DNA of 33,227 nt from Alphaproteobacteria bacterium (lineage in GTDB: Bacteria > Pseudomonadota > Alphaproteobacteria > Rhodobacterales > Rhodobacteraceae): NCBI GenBank assembly GCA_030427145.1, contig JAUHWT010000031.1, positions 1 through 33,227 on the forward strand. The letters run 5' to 3'. The notes beneath the pieces were generated by a model. That model was not told where the DNA came from. It saw only the letters and a list, made by a program, of their open reading frames with translations, and searched no databases. Numbering within the stretch: position 1 is the stretch's first letter; every line of letters starts with the position of its first letter. Position numbers and translations under genes: made by a program. Below, piece by piece: positions 25,426 to 33,227 of the stretch.

Positions 25426-28400
25426 CTAGACGAAAAGTGTATCCTCGACCACGAAGTTGAGATCCTCGGGGGCAAGGTCTTGGCCGACCAGTTTGAGTTT
25501 GTCGCGGTCGCCGTGGAACGTGACCGTGACGCCGATCCATGTATCCTCGATCTTCTTCACGGAGGTGCCGTCGGTCAGGACAAGCGTATCCTCGTCGTCA
25601 TCGTAATCGCGGACGACATCGATCTCGCGGCGGCGGTTTTGGGTCTCGGCACCAAAGACGAACTCATCCGCTCCGCCACGGCCACGCATGACGTCGAGAT
25701 AGCCCGCGCCGCTGACGATGCGGTCGTCGCCATCGGTGCCCTTGAGCCAGTTGCTGAAGCGGTTGCCCTCAATGAGGTTGATGTCATTCTCAAACCCGAA
25801 GGCCACGATGACCGGGTCATGGTCCGAGTTCCGGGCCGCGTTCTCCCCGTTGTAGATGTCGGGGTTGCGGGTGCCAAACTCGAAACCGCCATCATTGCTC
25901 CGGATGGAGAGTTCGTAGTCGATGGCGTCAGCCTCGTCGGCGTTGATGTGCCATTCGGTTACGCCCGCGATGTCATCCAACAGATCACCACTGCCCATCA
26001 CATAGTCCAGCGTTCCGGTCTGGCCGTCAAAGACATAGGACCGGGCGTCAGAGCCGAGCGCGTCATAGGCGATGTCGGAATAGCCTTGGTCGCGCAGCGC
26101 GTTGATCGGGTCTTCCTGGGCGTAGGAGTTCAGATCACCCACGATCAGGATGTTGTTTGAGCCCGAGCCGGTCGGGTCCGTGGCGAGATGATCGGCCAGG
26201 TATTCGGCCGCCGCCTCACGGGTGCCGTTGTTGTTGCCCGCGCCGTCGCCCTGATCCTCGTCCACGGCCAGTCCGGAGAGCGAGCCCTTGGATTTCAGGT
26301 GGTTGACAGAGACGGTTACGACCTCACCGCTTTCGACATGCTCAAATGTCTGGGTGACCGCCGGACGGTTCAGATCTCCACCGGAAGACAGGGGATCGGT
26401 GAAGGCGCTGTCGTCGAGAATATCCACGTCGCCGAGCGGGTTAGCCGTTTCAGTTTTGTAGATCAGGGCATTGGTGATGGCGTCTCCGCCGACCTGGCCC
26501 GTGTAGATGTAACCGTAGACATCCGATCCAAGCTCGGCGTTGACGGCATCCACAAGGGTTGCCAGCGGGGCGGAGGTGACGTCGTTCTCGATCTCCAGAA
26601 GGCCGACAACATCCGCTTCCATTGCAACGATGGCGTTGACGATTTTGGCTTCCTGGCGGACGAGTTCCTCTGCGGTGTTGGCACCGCGCGGCCCCTGGCC
26701 GGTAGTCGTGGAGTTGGAGCCGTCATTGAGCGTGGTGAAGTAGTTCAGCACGTTCAGGCTCGCGACCTTGAAGTTCCCGCCGAGATCCTCCGGCGCTTCC
26801 TCGCGGGGATTGGTGTTGGCGTAGTCGCCGGTGGCATCCTGAAGGCGGAACTCGTCGAAGGAGTAATCCACGACGCCCGTGAGGTTGGTCAGGGTGTCGC
26901 CCATCCGGAAATCGTCACCGGCATCGAGGATGCCATTGTCGCCGTCGATGATTTCGATGGGATCGGAGTAGCTGTCGGACGATCCGTCATCAATGACGAG
27001 GGACCGGGCGGCGTTGTCCTGCAGGTGCTGGTCGTAGCCATCGGCATCCGGGGCGTTGTTCTGGGTGAACTGTTCAAGCTGTCCGCCGGAGGTGACGGTG
27101 TACTGTCCGAAGCGGTCGAGGTTGAACATCTCGGTCACCGACATTTCGGTCGGGACCGTGATCATCATGCTCTCATAGGCTTCAAGATCGACCACGTAGT
27201 TGCCGTCGTCATCGAGCATCACGCCGGTGGTTGGGAAATTGACCTCGACAGCCTCCGGAATGTCGTTGCCGGAGCTGACAACCGTCACTTCGGTGGGTGT
27301 CAGCTGCGTCAGGCCAAAGTATTCCGAAACCTCACCGGTGACGCGAACGAGGTCGCCGGCCATCACGTCCTCGGCGGAGTAGATGAAGAGACCCTCGGAG
27401 GACCAGACATCGGCATCCCAGTCGCTTTCCTCTTCCATGACGTAGAAGCCGGTGTAGTCCGGGATCGCCGTCACGACAGCCTCAATCGTCACGGTCATGC
27501 CGCTGAAGGGGGAGACGTCGTCAACGCCGACCTGTGCAAATTCAGGTAGAGCGGAGAAGTCGGTGGAGCCCTGAATGTCGGAAATCAGGGTCAGTTCCGG
27601 TGTCTCGACCGGGACCGTGATCTCATGGAAGGTCAGCGTTTCCGAGACCTCGCTGGCAACGGCCAAGATCGGGGTGCCGGTGGGGCTGTCCCCGGCGGAG
27701 ATGAATTTCAGCCCTTCAGGTGCGATGTCCCCCTCGGTGCGGACATAGGTCACAAGTTCGGAGTTTTCCGGCTCGGAGATGTCATAGACCATGACGCCGC
27801 CGACGCGCTCAAGTCCGACGAAGGCAAAGGTGCGGCCCTCAACCTCGCCGACCACGACACCCTCGGGCTCAGCGCCCTTGTTGTCGGACCGGCCATCGAA
27901 GGTGTCAGCGTCGCCTTCTGAATTGTGCAGTTCGGCGAAGTCGGCTGCGATTTTTTGGGCGAACTGGTCGCCGCTGTCGAAGACCTGGTTTCCGTCCGCA
28001 TCCCAGATCGAGAAGGAGCGGGCGCCGTAGACATAGAGCTCATCAAAATCGCCATCGCCATCCGTATCGCCGTCAATGGTCGAGGCCTGGAGACGGCCAA
28101 TGCCCTCGTCGGTCTGGAGCGTTGCGGCGTCGGGGAAGGCATCCGGATCGAGAACCAGATCCTCAATACGCTCGTCCTCATCACGGGCGTCGCCCTCGTT
28201 GGCGGTGACGTAGTAGGTCTGACCATTGGCAGTGTAGGACGCGATGGCGTCGGGCATGTAGAGGCCCTTGACCGGCGCGGTGACGATGTTGATCGCTTCG
28301 TCCGTGTCGGACGTGTCGAGGCCGTTGCCGGGCAGGCTGTGGTCCTTCGCGCCGAGGGGCTGAATGTCCTCGAGGTCAATGGTGCCGGGCTGCGTGATGT

Positions 28401-31400
28401 CGTCGATTACAGCGACCGCGTTGGCCTCCTGCACGGTGATGAAGGCGGTTTTGCCCTCGATCGTGATGTATTCCGGTTCGAGATCGGCAGCGGCCGACCC
28501 TGTTCCGCTGTCGAAGACGCGCACACCCTTGGCGGCAAGCGCGTCGAATGTCACGTCTGCACCGAAGCTGAAGGTGTTGACGGTGGAGGCGGAGAAGTCG
28601 GACGTGTTGAGCGTGATGACCGAGATGCTGCCTTCCGGATCGACACCGTCATCGGCCTCGCCTTCATTCGCGACCACGGCATGGGTGCCGGTTTCATCGA
28701 AGGTGACCATATCGGGCAGGGCGCCCACGGTGACGCTTCCGAGGAAAGCGGAGGTTTCGGTGTCGTAGAAGAAGACCGCGCCCGGGGCCTGCTCGTTGTC
28801 GCCGGGGACGGCGGCGGCGAGGATGCCGTTTTTGACAGAGACGGAGGTGACGGCCGCGTCCGTCGCGCCATCAACGGTCGGGTCGATCAGTTCGATTTCA
28901 GAGAGGCTGGACGGATCGGAGGCGTCAACGACCTGAATGCCGTCGCCGGACGAGATGAAGGCGCGGTCCGAAGCCGGATCGAAATCAATGATTTCCGCGC
29001 CGCTGGACAGGGAGAGCGTGTTGAGCGCGGTGAGTTCGAGCGGGAACGGTTCGGGAAGTTCTTCCCCGCCACTGCCGTTATGGGAGCCGAGGTCGTCGAA
29101 ACTGTCCTGGCCGGTGCTGGTCCATTCATTCGCGAGGCCGGAGAGATCGGAGCCGAAGCCGTCGGTATTTCCTTCGGAGATGCCCTCATTGCGGATCAGG
29201 GTGTTGTTCTGCGTGCTGTTGCCGCCGCTGGTCCAGGAGGAACCGGGATCGACGAAACCGGCGCCATCGTCAGGCGTGCCGATCATGTCGATGATGTTCG
29301 CGCCACCGGCGACGCTCGTGCCGCCGTTCAGGAGCAGCAGGTGATCGTCGCCGTTGTGGGAAAGGGTTCCAGAGGTCAGATCGGCGACGTCGAGGATTGC
29401 GGCATCGGCCATGGGGTTCGCCACAACGAACACGGCGCCGGCGGCGAGCGTGCCGCTCAGGGCGATTGTGGCCTCAACATCGGTGCCGCCATTCGAGATG
29501 CGGCCGATATTGTAGTCAGCGAGATCAATATCAGCGCCGGTGTTGTTGAAAATCTCAACGGCCTTGTTGTTGCTGGAACCTTCGACGTATTCGGAGAAGA
29601 ACACGCCGCCGGCGGAGCTGTCGTCGTCGATGACGGTGTCCTCAGCGAAGGCAAGGTTCTGCATACGCGTGTCGCCGGCACGGTCGGTGTCGGCCTCGCT
29701 GTAGGGATTGTCCGCGTCGAAATTTGCGGCAAGGTATTCGGCCAGGGCGTCCTGCTCGGAGCCGTCTGGGGCGAAATCGGCAACGCCGGTGCGGGGGGCG
29801 GTTTCCTCCTGGTCGAGGTCAATGCGGTTCACGCGGGCCGCAATGTCGGCGTCGTAATTCGGGTCGGTTGGATCGGTCACCGGGAAGGGGTAGCCATCGC
29901 CGCCGCTTGCCAGGAAGCCGAGTGTCACGATGCGCACCTCGGCGGAGCCGTCGCCCTGGAGCACACCGTCACGCAGCAGAACGTCAATGTCGCTGCCCTC
30001 CGCATCCGTGATGGCTGCGTTCACGAGGCGCGAGCCGGGATCAGCGGTCAGATCGAAGCTGAACTGCACGCCTGAAACCTGGGGGAAGCGGCCCTGGGTG
30101 TTGGTGTCGTCGGGGGAGGAGGCCTCAAGGCCGTATTCCAGGATGTCCACCAGTTCGGCGCGGGTAAGGGTTGCCAGCGACAGGCCGTTGTTGAAGGACA
30201 ACGCATTGGAAATTGCCGTCTGGCTGATGCCGCCGTCGGGACGGCCGGTCAGCTCATTGCCTTCAGGGGGCAGGAAGGACGGTTCGGTGTCGCCGGGCAG
30301 AACCGTGGTTTCGCCGATGTCGTTGCGGACGCCGCCGCCGTTTTTGATCGAGACCAGCACGGAGCCATCGGCTTCCTGGGCCAGCGCGAGGTTGGCATCG
30401 GCGGTCAGGTTGCCAAGGTTTGTTTCCTGGATGCGGACCGACTCGCGGGTGCCGTTGAGGAAGACCTCGGCGATGCCGAAATAGTTGCCGTCCTGTGCGA
30501 TGATTTCAGCCTCAAGCTTTTCGACGATCTCCTCAATCTCCGGGTCGATGAGGTCCTCACCGCCAACCGCGGCCAGACCGGCCTCATCGGTGGCATAGGC
30601 GCCGGAAACGGTTTCGTCGTAGCTCTCGGCGATAACGTTGCCGTCCGCGTCAAAATCGAGCACGAGGCGGCCAACATATTTGTAGTTGCCGTCCGTGTTG
30701 ACCAGCGCGACGTAATTGCCATCCGCGTCCTTGAGGAAGGTCGGGTACTGGCCCTGGTCGCGGTCATCGGTGCGGGGCGTGTCGTTGTCATCGAAGAGAC
30801 GGGTGTTGGAGCCGCCGGCCACAACGATATCGACGCCGGACAGGCGCGTGGCGAGTTCCTGTTCGATGGAAATCTGCTGCATGTGGGCGAGCAGAACGAC
30901 CTTGTTCATGTCGGGATTGTTGGCGAGCAGGCTGTCGACCTCGCCCTGTATGACGGCGGCCAGCGCATCGAGTTCGGCGTCGCTCGGGTTGCCGCCGAAC
31001 TCGGTCGGCAGAATGGTCACGTCGCCTGGTGAGGAAATCGACCCGAGCGTAGGCGTGGTCGCGCCAATGACACCGACTTTTTCAGCGTCGGCACCGGTTT
31101 CGATTACTACGGAAGAGGTGACGGTATTGGCCAGCGGGCTGCCACCACCGGCAACTTCCAGCGGCGCCAGATTGGCATCGGTCGAATAGTCCAGATTGGT
31201 GGAGAGATAGGGGAAGAGGGCGCCCCCGTAACCGGTCTTGGCGTCCGCCGCGATCAAACCGGCCAGTGCCGCGGCACCCTTGTCAAACTCATGGTTGCCG
31301 AGCGCAACGGCCTGAACGCCGAGTTCGTTCTGGATCATGATATCCGCGCGCCCCTCGCCACCATAGGTGTTGAAGGAGGCGGAGAAAAACACACCGGGGA

Positions 31401-31665
31401 TGAAGGCGTCACCGGATGACAGGATCAGCGTGTTGTCGGCCTCGCCGTCATCGCCGATGTCCTCGGCCTCAAGGGCGTTGAGGACGCCGGACAAGCGGGG
31501 GGCGTCCTCGAGGGCGTCGATGTTGCCTTCCTGATCCGCGAAATGAAACAGTTCGAGAGTAAAATCACCCGTATCCGCCGCCGCATTGCCAGGCGTGCCG
31601 CCCGTCAGTTCCGAAAAATCGTCCTCAGCCACATCAAAATCAGTCGTGGAACCGTCGTTCAGCAT
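25426..31665 (-). CDS. Giant secreted 5'-nucleotidase/nuclease (ExeM/NucH-like)
   Basis: The product has about 2,079 residues; ATG 31665 follows GGGAGAGGA. Domains in order: UshA-type metallophosphatase (about 33-400; ELFHFADQEGN, SSGDAFIPG, GNHEFDKG); 5'-nucleotidase C-terminal domain (410-660; SIKNGGGVRNDIG); lamin-tail domain (685-860; FFSEYVEGSSNNKAVEIFN); choice-of-anchor-I-type beta-propeller (870-1350); OB-like domain (1357-1500); endonuclease/exonuclease/phosphatase nuclease (1625-1955; VASLNVLNYFTTL, GLLEIEND, VNHLKSKG, VGDLNSYAQEDP, NSDHDPV). An RTX-like tail (GNRFSNWLKGTDGDDRI ... LNFVVEDTLFV) closes it. No Sec signal is present, so type I secretion is likely. It would cut extracellular DNA/RNA and strip phosphate from the nucleotides. 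A Pho-box-like site lies upstream. Confidence 0.9.
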   Translation of the reverse strand: MLNDGSTTDFDVAEDDFSELTGGTPGNAAADTGDFTLELFHFADQEGNIDALEDAPRLSGVLNALEAEDIGDDGEADNTLILSSGDAFIPGVFFSASFNTYGGEGRADIMIQNELGVQAVALGNHEFDKGAAALAGLIAADAKTGYGGALFPYLSTNLDYSTDANLAPLEVAGGGSPLANTVTSSVVIETGADAEKVGVIGATTPTLGSISSPGDVTILPTEFGGNPSDAELDALAAVIQGEVDSLLANNPDMNKVVLLAHMQQISIEQELATRLSGVDIVVAGGSNTRLFDDNDTPRTDDRDQGQYPTFLKDADGNYVALVNTDGNYKYVGRLVLDFDADGNVIAESYDETVSGAYATDEAGLAAVGGEDLIDPEIEEIVEKLEAEIIAQDGNYFGIAEVFLNGTRESVRIQETNLGNLTADANLALAQEADGSVLVSIKNGGGVRNDIGETTVLPGDTEPSFLPPEGNELTGRPDGGISQTAISNALSFNNGLSLATLTRAELVDILEYGLEASSPDDTNTQGRFPQVSGVQFSFDLTADPGSRLVNAAITDAEGSDIDVLLRDGVLQGDGSAEVRIVTLGFLASGGDGYPFPVTDPTDPNYDADIAARVNRIDLDQEETAPRTGVADFAPDGSEQDALAEYLAANFDADNPYSEADTDRAGDTRMQNLAFAEDTVIDDDSSAGGVFFSEYVEGSSNNKAVEIFNNTGADIDLADYNIGRISNGGTDVEATIALSGTLAAGAVFVVANPMADAAILDVADLTSGTLSHNGDDHLLLLNGGTSVAGGANIIDMIGTPDDGAGFVDPGSSWTSGGNSTQNNTLIRNEGISEGNTDGFGSDLSGLANEWTSTGQDSFDDLGSHNGSGGEELPEPFPLELTALNTLSLSSGAEIIDFDPASDRAFISSGDGIQVVDASDPSSLSEIELIDPTVDGATDAAVTSVSVKNGILAAAVPGDNEQAPGAVFFYDTETSAFLGSVTVGALPDMVTFDETGTHAVVANEGEADDGVDPEGSISVITLNTSDFSASTVNTFSFGADVTFDALAAKGVRVFDSGTGSAAADLEPEYITIEGKTAFITVQEANAVAVIDDITQPGTIDLEDIQPLGAKDHSLPGNGLDTSDTDEAINIVTAPVKGLYMPDAIASYTANGQTYYVTANEGDARDEDERIEDLVLDPDAFPDAATLQTDEGIGRLQASTIDGDTDGDGDFDELYVYGARSFSIWDADGNQVFDSGDQFAQKIAADFAELHNSEGDADTFDGRSDNKGAEPEGVVVGEVEGRTFAFVGLERVGGVMVYDISEPENSELVTYVRTEGDIAPEGLKFISAGDSPTGTPILAVASEVSETLTFHEITVPVETPELTLISDIQGSTDFSALPEFAQVGVDDVSPFSGMTVTIEAVVTAIPDYTGFYVMEEESDWDADVWSSEGLFIYSAEDVMAGDLVRVTGEVSEYFGLTQLTPTEVTVVSSGNDIPEAVEVNFPTTGVMLDDDGNYVVDLEAYESMMITVPTEMSVTEMFNLDRFGQYTVTSGGQLEQFTQNNAPDADGYDQHLQDNAARSLVIDDGSSDSYSDPIEIIDGDNGILDAGDDFRMGDTLTNLTGVVDYSFDEFRLQDATGDYANTNPREEAPEDLGGNFKVASLNVLNYFTTLNDGSNSTTTGQGPRGANTAEELVRQEAKIVNAIVAMEADVVGLLEIENDVTSAPLATLVDAVNAELGSDVYGYIYTGQVGGDAITNALIYKTETANPLGDVDILDDSAFTDPLSSGGDLNRPAVTQTFEHVESGEVVTVSVNHLKSKGSLSGLAVDEDQGDGAGNNNGTREAAAEYLADHLATDPTGSGSNNILIVGDLNSYAQEDPINALRDQGYSDIAYDALGSDARSYVFDGQTGTLDYVMGSGDLLDDIAGVTEWHINADEADAIDYELSIRSNDGGFEFGTRNPDIYNGENAARNSDHDPVIVAFGFENDINLIEGNRFSNWLKGTDGDDRIVSGAGYLDVMRGRGGADEFVFGAETQNRRREIDVVRDYDDDEDTLVLTDGTSVKKIEDTWIGVTVTFHGDRDKLKLVGQDLAPEDLNFVVEDTLFV

Positions 31666-31739
31666 TGGGCATCCTCTCCCGTTATTCACCCGGCAGTTTT
31701 TGCCCGGGCACACCAGCAACAGTTTGTTAACGATTCAGT

Positions 31740-31918: not shown

Positions 31919-32078
31919 GGCCGCAGAAAATCTGAAAAAATCCAACAAAATCAAAGGCCGACCCTCTGCGAAACAGCCTTCGGACCTGCATTGTGCCCAT
32001 CGAACTGCCACAGTCAAGTGCTCAGTATCTTGCCAAGTAGTGCAGTGGTTTTAACGCAGCTATTGAACAGATGGCTGG

Positions 32079-32106
32079 TTGAAAAGCCCCAGTAAGGCAC
32101 TTAACG
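32079..32106 (+). promoter_or_regulatory. Possible retron promoter
   Basis: TTGAAA (32079-32084), a 16-nt spacer and TTAACG (32101-32106) would start transcription near 32113, at the beginning of the retron ncRNA. The -10 is poor. Nothing else of note is seen in 31919-32078, which is A-rich in part and holds no convincing gene. Confidence 0.3.
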
Positions 32107-32248
32107 TGAAGCCAGCTTGCGGATAGATCTTTCCGCTGTGCTTCGCAGCGGGTGAAACAATGGTATGGAGGAATTGCTCCTTCGTCATCTTTGCAACTTT
32201 ACTGGAAATCCGGTGGGTTTGCTCAACGAGTATCCGCAAGCGCTTTAT
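32106..32248 (+). ncRNA. Retron msr-msd non-coding RNA
   Basis: The region is bounded by complementary ends, the a1/a2 pair of retrons. GCTTGCGGATA (32115-32125) is perfectly complementary to TATCCGCAAGC (32231-32241). After a 2-nt bulge (32113-32114) the pairing continues, with two G-T pairs, between 32106-32112 and 32242-32248, giving 18 bp in all. The G at 32126 directly after a1 is the likely branch G. Inside are an 8-bp hairpin with a CTT loop (32133-32151), an imperfect 15-pair-long hairpin with loop ATTGC (32158-32193) and a short ACTGG/CCGGT hairpin (32201-32214). The reverse transcriptase ATG is 12 nt downstream. The msr/msd boundary cannot be fixed by eye. Confidence 0.8.
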
Positions 32249-32259
32249 CAGGGGGCAGA

Positions 32260-33105
32260 ATGGCGACGATGCTGACCAGACTTAAAGCTTGCGCCAGTCG
32301 CAAAGAACTTGCGTTACTTCTTGGCTTCAAGCCCAAAGCACTTTCATACGTACTTTTTCAAGTGGCTGACAAAGACAAGTATGCTGTTTTTGAAATCCCC
32401 AAGAAAAATGGCGGTCATCGAACAATCGCTGCCCCCATACCTCAACTAAAATTGTTGCAGTCTAGGCTTGCTCACTGTCTTCAAGCTTGTCTTGATGAGA
32501 TTGAGAAGGCAGACGGCGTCAAGGAAAGTTGCGCTCTTTCGCATGGCTTTCACACTGGGAGGTCGATCTGTTCGAACGCTGAGATCCACAAGGGCCGTAG
32601 ATGGGTTCTTAACATTGATTTGAAGGACTTCTTCCCAAGCATTAATTTTGGCCGGGTTCGCGGTTTTTTTATCAAGAACAATAAGTTCTCTCTGAATCCT
32701 GATGTCGCCACTGCTATCGCCCAGATAGCGTGCCATGACAACAGTCTCCCTCAGGGAAGTCCTTGTTCCCCTGTGATATCAAATCTGCTTGGCCATTTGC
32801 TGGATATCAAACTCAACCAAATGGCGAAAAGAGCACGTTGCAGCTATTCCCGCTATGCGGATGATATTACGTTTTCATGCAGTAAAAAGGAGTTCCCGAC
32901 GGAAATAGCATTGCCCACATCCGTTGAAAGTACTCAATGGATTCCCTCGGATAAGGTCCGACATGTGATACATTCTTCGGGCTATCAAGTTAACCCACAG
33001 AAAACCCGTATGCAGTTCTATTGGTCTCGACAGGACGCTACCGGCCTTGTGGTCAATAAAAAGGTTAATGTTCCGAGGGATTATGTGAAAGCGACAAGAG
33101 CGTGA
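32260..33105 (+). CDS. ret: Retron reverse transcriptase, C-terminus truncated by an insertion
   Basis: An RNA-directed DNA polymerase of 281 residues as it stands. Motifs in order: IPKKNGGHRTIAAPIPQLKLLQ (46-67), the retron-specific NAEIH (106-110, NAxxH), NIDLKDFFPSI (118-128, first catalytic Asp), LPQGSPCSPVISN (163-175), catalytic YADD (199-202), GYQVNPQKTR (241-250) and ATGLVVNKKVN (260-270), a variant of the VTG motif that recognises the msr. It copies the adjacent ncRNA into msDNA, usually as part of phage defence. I chose ATG 32260, after GGGGG; an earlier in-frame start (32152) would lie inside the ncRNA. The frame stops exactly at an IS-like tip, so the true C-terminus, normally some tens of residues longer, is lost. 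G+C is about 48%, far below the neighbours. Confidence 0.9.
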   Translation: MATMLTRLKACASRKELALLLGFKPKALSYVLFQVADKDKYAVFEIPKKNGGHRTIAAPIPQLKLLQSRLAHCLQACLDEIEKADGVKESCALSHGFHTGRSICSNAEIHKGRRWVLNIDLKDFFPSINFGRVRGFFIKNNKFSLNPDVATAIAQIACHDNSLPQGSPCSPVISNLLGHLLDIKLNQMAKRARCSYSRYADDITFSCSKKEFPTEIALPTSVESTQWIPSDKVRHVIHSSGYQVNPQKTRMQFYWSRQDATGLVVNKKVNVPRDYVKATRA

Positions 33106-33227
33106 CCTGCCCCCCGGTGGTCCCTCGTTCATAACGAGAGTCTGCGGGTTTGATTTTGATAGTCATGGGTTTTGGCTTGGGCAAGCGCGCCGGGCGCGGA
33201 GCCCTCAAATTGCTCAAGCGCTCGGCG
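33103..33227. mobile_element. End of an IS3-family-like insertion sequence (continues past window)
   Basis: The retron frame breaks at 33103 where TGACCTGCCCCCC begins, a TG...CCCC tip of the kind found in IS3-family terminal repeats. On the minus strand a frame open from the window edge ends at 33129 (tail THDYQNQTRRLSL), 26 nt from the tip, as expected for the 3' end of a transposase gene. No target-site duplication can be tested because the other end is outside the window. Confidence 0.6.
33129..33227 (-). CDS. Putative transposase C-terminal end (cut by window edge)
   Basis: Thirty-two residues in frame from the window edge (RRALEQFEGSAPGALAQAKT...RRLSL), then TGA at 33131-33129. It resembles the low-complexity tail of IS3-type OrfB proteins by position and orientation relative to the IS tip, but it holds no catalytic motif, so the identification rests on context. 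Confidence 0.4.
   Translation of the reverse strand, partial: RRALEQFEGSAPGALAQAKTHDYQNQTRRLSL

What the first reader, a model, noticed from the sequence alone, without database searches (positions are those of the whole stretch)
32106..33105. Compact retron with readable a1/a2 ends and ncRNA fold next to a divergent retron reverse transcriptase
The reverse transcriptase has NAxxH and YADD, and ATG in place of the usual VTG in the msr-recognition region. Upstream, an 11-bp perfect inverted repeat that extends to 18 bp with a 2-nt bulge encloses about 105 nt with three hairpins, the exact layout of msr-msd. The ncRNA is short, and its longest hairpin is only about 15 pairs. Retrons in marine alphaproteobacteria are little characterised.
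Basis: partly seen in the sequence, partly recalled or inferred. Interest (0 to 1): 0.85.

Follow-up and report, generated by a model that had tools for sequence, protein, structure and literature searches.

The report
IS-truncated Ec67-type (I-C) retron remnant
This is a real bacterial anti-phage retron of a known kind, with its RNA part intact but its enzyme gene cut by a jumping element, so in this assembly it is most likely a broken copy.

Summary
The ncRNA call is right. The inverted repeat is exact. A covariance model built from 51 homologues' upstream regions without the window has one match in the 33 kb, at 32114-32242 (86 bits, E 3.5e-21). Of the 12 a1/a2 pairs, 11 show two-sided changes, and the branch G (32126) is G in 51 of 51 homologues. 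The reverse transcriptase is not a divergent new type: it is the N-terminal 281 residues of a type I-C (Ec67/Eco2) RT-Toprim fusion. The stop codon at 33103 starts at the first base of an IS3-family element end (33103-33227), whose 125 bp recur at four other contig ends. The gene is therefore cut near the start of the thumb, and the Toprim half was not found in the genome. The nearest relative (L007, 74% identical) has an uninterrupted 573-residue protein. One mildly interesting point: the ncRNA is 92% identical to L007's while synonymous sites of the RT gene are saturated.

The parts
32114..32242 (+). retron ncRNA (msr-msd), core with a1/a2
   Evidence: sole match (E limit 10) of window-free covariance model R1, 86.1 bits, E 3.5e-21
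32115..32125 (+). a1 arm of the inverted repeat
   Evidence: two-sided changes in 11 of 12 a1/a2 pairs across 51 homologues
32126..32126 (+). predicted branching guanosine
   Evidence: G in 51 of 51 homologues at this column; role by analogy with rG15 of Eco2 (PMC12405507)
32132..32152 (+). msr stem-loop
   Evidence: RNA fold; 6 of 6 pairs of the homologous helix show two-sided changes
32162..32229 (+). predicted msd template, about 66-68 nt (5' limit uncertain by a few nt)
   Evidence: inference by position relative to the branch G, from Eco2 (rG15, RNA-DNA duplex from rG52, 67-nt msd; PMC12405507); DNA fold not better than shuffles
32231..32241 (+). a2 arm of the inverted repeat
   Evidence: preceded by GAG as in 50 of 51 homologues
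32260..33102 (+). N-terminal 281 codons of a type I-C RT-Toprim gene (fingers, palm, start of thumb by comparison with Eco2); NAxxH, YADD, ATG
   Evidence: PADLOC PDLC02966 residues 3-281 to profile 7-280 of 568, E 1.2e-135; Ec67 chain 6-278, E 8.2e-75
33103..33227 (.). terminal 125 bp of an IS3-family element, which supplies the TGA stop and the contig end
   Evidence: identical at 4 other contig ends; 94% identical to the end of an element with an annotated IS3-family transposase on a Sagittula plasmid; homology to L007 stops at its first base

Best explanation
The locus is the remains of a type I-C (Ec67/Eco2-like) retron. An intact one works like this: the ncRNA pairs its ends (a1/a2), the RT starts DNA synthesis from the 2'-OH of the guanosine after a1 and copies the msd; the msDNA binds the RT-Toprim protein and keeps its Toprim RNase off until a phage disturbs the msDNA. 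Here the ncRNA and the first 281 codons are intact, but an IS3-family element entered the gene near the start of the thumb. The product lacks most of the thumb and the whole Toprim effector, so it most likely makes no msDNA and gives no defence. Shown here: ncRNA, covariation, family, IS end, absence of the 3' half from the assembly. Inferred: original function, present inactivity.
For: ncRNA. The same model finds the ncRNA of an E. coli plasmid retron annotated 'retron Ec67 family' that was not in its training set (L119, E 6.6e-16), and all 8 homologues dropped from training. Family; tree sister L007, 100/100 support. Truncation: homology stops at the IS tip; 125 bp identical at 4 other contig ends; IS3 identity; 4 of the 5 IS copies show 4-5 bp target duplications when the ends are paired (by eye). 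3' half absent: 0 matches at E<=10, single I-C match in the genome. Eco2 RT spans 1-368 and Toprim 369-586, and the thumb residue H281 contacts the msr loop (PMC12405507, Results read); the window's frame ends at Ec67 chain position 278.
Against: The other side of the insertion is not in the assembly, so the target duplication at this copy could not be checked. The IS body is also absent from the assembly, so absence of the 3' half may be a missing short contig rather than a true loss. No expression or msDNA data. The PADLOC I-C match is to the RT half only, which types XI and XII also match well. The training set of the model holds L007, whose ncRNA is 92% identical, which raises the score. 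The predicted msd shows no DNA-fold signal.
Confidence: 0.9

Rival explanations
1. The strain's retron is intact, and the junction is an assembly error or a minority variant at a repeat edge.
For: The junction lies 125 bp from the contig end inside a 5-copy repeat, and no partner junction was found.
Against: The switch falls exactly on the IS tip, as at the other four copies. No uninterrupted copy or 3' half was found in the assembly.
Confidence: 0.06
2. The truncated RT still works with its ncRNA as an effector-free msDNA producer.
For: YADD, NAxxH and the ncRNA are intact, and the frame has no other lesion up to the IS.
Against: Most of the thumb is gone; in Eco2 palm and thumb hold the RNA-DNA duplex, and the thumb contacts the msr loop (PMC12405507). 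Of the 51 aligned homologues, 46 have a C-terminal half like L007's; the other 5 frames run 321-537 residues, two of them (L026, L031) cut by their contig's end.
Confidence: 0.04
3. The RT belongs to a group II intron or diversity-generating element, and the inverted repeat is chance.
For: They share the RVT_1 domain (for the window; the rest is general knowledge).
Against: Retron families outscore by far; the covariance model E is 3.5e-21.
Confidence: 0.001

Closest known systems
Retron Ec67 / Eco2 (type I-C, RT-Toprim fusion; PDB 9lm3, 9i2f)
   Same: RT half aligned over residues 4-281 to Ec67 6-278; one model finds both the window's ncRNA and that of an Ec67-family E. coli retron; order ncRNA then RT, with 18 nt between the a2 arm and the start here
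   Different: Here the protein ends at residue 281, with no Toprim; ATG instead of VTG; the predicted msd has two hairpins as RNA and only weak ones as DNA, where Eco2 has one long DNA hairpin
Retron of Rhodobacteraceae bacterium Alg231_04 (L007)
   Same: 74% identical RT half, 92% identical ncRNA, ATG motif
   Different: Uninterrupted 573-residue RT-Toprim; flanked upstream by what looks like an IS66 cluster (named from recall; ORFs)
IS3-family element of Sagittula sp. P11 plasmid (NZ_CP021915.1)
   Same: 94-95% identical over both ends of the element; IS3-family transposase annotated
   Different: Complete there; in this genome only 122-130 bp of each end match

Membership tests
Retron | RT with NAxxH, YADD and xTG | tested here: met
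   (NAEIH 106, YADD 199, ATG 260)
Retron | structured ncRNA upstream with covarying a1/a2 and branch G | tested here: met
Retron | msDNA with 2',5'-linked RNA-DNA | not testable with these tools
   needs nucleic acid from the strain
Type I-C retron (Ec67/Eco2) | RT best matched by I-C models | tested here: met
   451 bits against 340 for the next type
Type I-C retron (Ec67/Eco2) | fused C-terminal Toprim effector | tested here: not met
   frame ends at 33105 at an IS tip; L007's C-terminal half has no match in the genome at E<=10. Hence filed as a truncated derivative of the I-C lineage, not an intact member
IS3-family insertion | matching terminal inverted repeats | tested here: met
   same 14 bp TGACCTGCCCCCCG at both kinds of end
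IS3-family insertion | 3-5 bp target duplication | tested here: inconclusive
   seen at 4 of 5 copies (paired by eye); the far side of this copy is not assembled
IS3-family insertion | IS3 transposase | tested here: inconclusive
   annotated in the 94-95% identical Sagittula element; the body is absent from this assembly
Group II intron or DGR RT | best match to those RTs | tested here: not met
   best entry named group II intron RT 2.6e-6 against 8.2e-75 for Ec67; no DGR RT is named among the 18 matches. No tree with group II or DGR RTs was built

The most novel reading that the evidence does not exclude
In the window/L007 pair the msd is held by selection on its letters, not only on its hairpins: the ncRNA is 119 of 129 identical (msd part 61 of 68), while fourfold-degenerate sites of the adjoining RT gene agree in only 16% (85 sites). 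The msd may thus carry a specific recognition sequence, for example the site a phage or host protein attacks to trip the Toprim effector, shared by related retrons of this group.
Probability: 0.15. Interest if true: 0.4.

Novelty: new member of a known kind. Interest (0 to 1): 0.15.

Why it matters
It corrects a seemingly novel divergent compact retron to a known type broken by an IS, and shows that reading an RT's length at a contig edge can mislead. The 51-sequence alignment and covariance model describe the type I-C ncRNA across several phyla (tree labels); Rfam 15 had no family that matched it here.

Tried and rejected
Rfam at gathering and permissive thresholds gave nothing. Search of the genus for the flanking region to see an empty site: only weak 34-77 bp matches in 4 of the 10 other genomes, no synteny. 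Promoter scan: nothing on the + strand upstream of the ncRNA. DNA folding of the predicted msd: no signal for the window or for L007, L022 and L119 (z 0.39, 0.11, -1.10, -1.12). DNA search of plasmids with 32000-33102: one weak match. An open frame from GTG 32152 through the ncRNA into the RT is also open in L007; I read it as a by-product of ncRNA conservation, but no coding test was run. Literature: Results of PMC12405507 read plus its abstract; passages only of PMC12548924 (one, in its reference list) and PMC10221251; other papers only as search listings with abstract starts.

Rows dropped: 8 of 59 homologues before alignment A1, because automatic arm detection was out of register; all 8 later matched the model. 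L064, L078, L088 and L089 were dropped before the tree, leaving 82 of 86 rows. L064 and L078 were not searched with the model. 19 of the 32 loci had no model match at E<=0.01: L088, L089, 11 cyanobacterial loci and 6 others; none of the 19 has a C-terminal match (L088 was read on the wrong strand there). L075 matched the model (E 0.00084) without a C-terminal match.

Full report
What the finding claimed and what is there. The 11-bp inverted repeat lies at 32115-32125 and 32231-32241 with 105 nt between the arms. The RNA fold of 32100-32259 gives 18 pairs with a 2-nt bulge and three inner hairpins of 9, 11 and 12 pairs, z -3.66. The protein carries NAxxH, YADD and ATG.

The ncRNA is real. I took upstream regions of 59 homologues (L007-L063, L073 and L087), located arms automatically, kept 51 in register and aligned them without the window (A1). 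RNAalifold predicted 19 pairs, 17 with two-sided changes. For the 18 pairs of a1/a2 and the msr stem, 97.6% of cells pair, against 79.6% in shuffles and 29 to 38% when the partner is slid; 17 of 18 pairs show two-sided changes. Column 13, the branch position, is G in 51 of 51. The arms were picked by complementarity, which favours pairing in the a1/a2 columns; the msr stem was not picked that way. The model built from A1 found one match in the window, 32114-32242, 86.1 bits, E 3.5e-21. A1 includes L007, whose ncRNA is 92% identical to the window's, so the score owes something to one close relative. The same model also found 13 of 32 further loci at E<=0.01, including all 8 dropped homologues, an E. 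coli plasmid retron annotated as Ec67 family and a Sinorhizobium one. The 19 without a match include the 11 cyanobacterial loci, which have no C-terminal match to L007. No Rfam family matches.

The RT is type I-C. PADLOC gives RT-Toprim_I-C 451 bits, covering profile positions 7 to 280 of 568; the next type, XII, scores 340. The best solved relative is Ec67, E 8.2e-75, query 4-281 to chain 6-278; the best entry named as a group II intron RT scores 2.6e-6. In a tree of 82 rows (4 of 86 dropped) the window is sister to L007 with 100/100 support, inside a 19-row group (95/95): the window, 17 rows from records that I class as Alphaproteobacteria by their names, and one labelled Cyclobacteriaceae. 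ATG in place of VTG occurs in 9 of the 82 rows, the window included. The tree holds no group II intron or DGR rows.

The gene is cut. Homologues continue past residue 281 into the rest of the thumb and a Toprim domain: L007 has 573 residues matching the I-C profile 6-555, and 46 of the 51 A1 homologues match L007's C-terminal half at E<=1e-5. The window instead has TGA at 33103, the first base of a 125-bp stretch identical at four other contig ends of the same genome. On a Sagittula plasmid a 94% identical stretch belongs to an element with an annotated IS3-family transposase. In this genome five such right ends and four left ends are assembled, all at contig edges. Pairing them by flank (by eye) gives target duplications CGAT, CCCA, AACT and GTAGG for four copies; the partner of the window's end is missing. 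The IS body is missing too, so short repeat contigs were probably not kept. A search with L007's C-terminal half gave no match at E<=10, and the I-C profile matches the genome once. The tool notes that an empty answer without a positive control shows nothing; as a partial control, the same half matches 60 of 85 homologous frames by blastp at E<=1e-5.

How it would have worked. In Eco2 (PMC12405507, Results read) the RT spans residues 1-368 and the Toprim 369-586. The branch is rG15, the msd is 67 nt, the msDNA-bound trimer is self-inhibited, and the Toprim is an RNase; the authors propose that phage DenB triggers it by degrading msDNA. By position the window's msd would be about 66 to 68 nt (inference). 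The truncated product ends at Ec67 position 278, before H281 and the trimer loop, and without effector. It is therefore most likely inert (inference). In Eco2, isolated Toprim fragments were toxic; whether the severed 3' part was lost for that reason here is speculation.

A side observation. The window and L007 ncRNAs are 119 of 129 identical (a1 12 of 12, msr part 33 of 36, predicted msd 61 of 68, a2 12 of 12), while the RT genes are 68% identical in DNA and their synonymous sites are saturated (pS 0.85, pN 0.16); fourfold sites agree in 16% of 85. Over 57 loci, 164 pairs have RT identity of at least 60%; in 156 of them ncRNA identity exceeds RT DNA identity, and of the 152 pairs below 85% RT identity this pair has the highest ncRNA identity, 0.92, next 0.91. 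So it is the extreme of a trend rather than a new phenomenon. The pairs share loci and are not independent, and the alignment used favours matches. Two close pairs, L008/L014 and L056/L059, show the reverse.

Distribution. Of 101 genomes searched (own plus 100 relatives), 4 had a match at E<=1e-40: the own genome, one I-C relative whose ncRNA is in A1 (G017), and two RTs without a model match (G018, G027). The best-listed plasmid matches include many annotated 'retron Ec67 family'. A type II-like retron (msr-msd, NDT, RT) has been predicted in print on the chromosome of a marine Sulfitobacter (PMC10221251, passages; 'type II-like' from recall), so retrons in such hosts are not unreported. The paper searches made here listed no report that I recognised as this locus; they cover only the held library.

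Conclusion: a bona fide retron locus of the type I-C lineage, very probably a pseudogene through IS3-family insertion. Interest is low.

Noticed in passing
32114-32242 and L007:4855-4983: ncRNA 92% identical between two retrons whose RT synonymous sites are saturated; points to sequence-level selection on the ncRNA, msd included.
   Followed up: partly
25426-31719 (-): 2097-residue frame combining 5'-nucleotidase C-terminal, lamin tail, choice-of-anchor I and endonuclease/exonuclease/phosphatase domains; looks like a secreted nucleotidase-nuclease.
   Followed up: no
G000 contig C1 (L005, L105): The two ends of the 209 kb contig C1 carry the two different ends of the same IS with a shared GTAGG flank, suggesting a circular replicon with one IS copy.
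   Followed up: no
L012 (RT frame from 752) and L057 (RT frame from 5001): Two other type I-C homologues have RT frames that stop at 326 and 321 residues, with Toprim-half-like sequence following in the same locus; interrupted genes or sequencing errors.
   Followed up: partly
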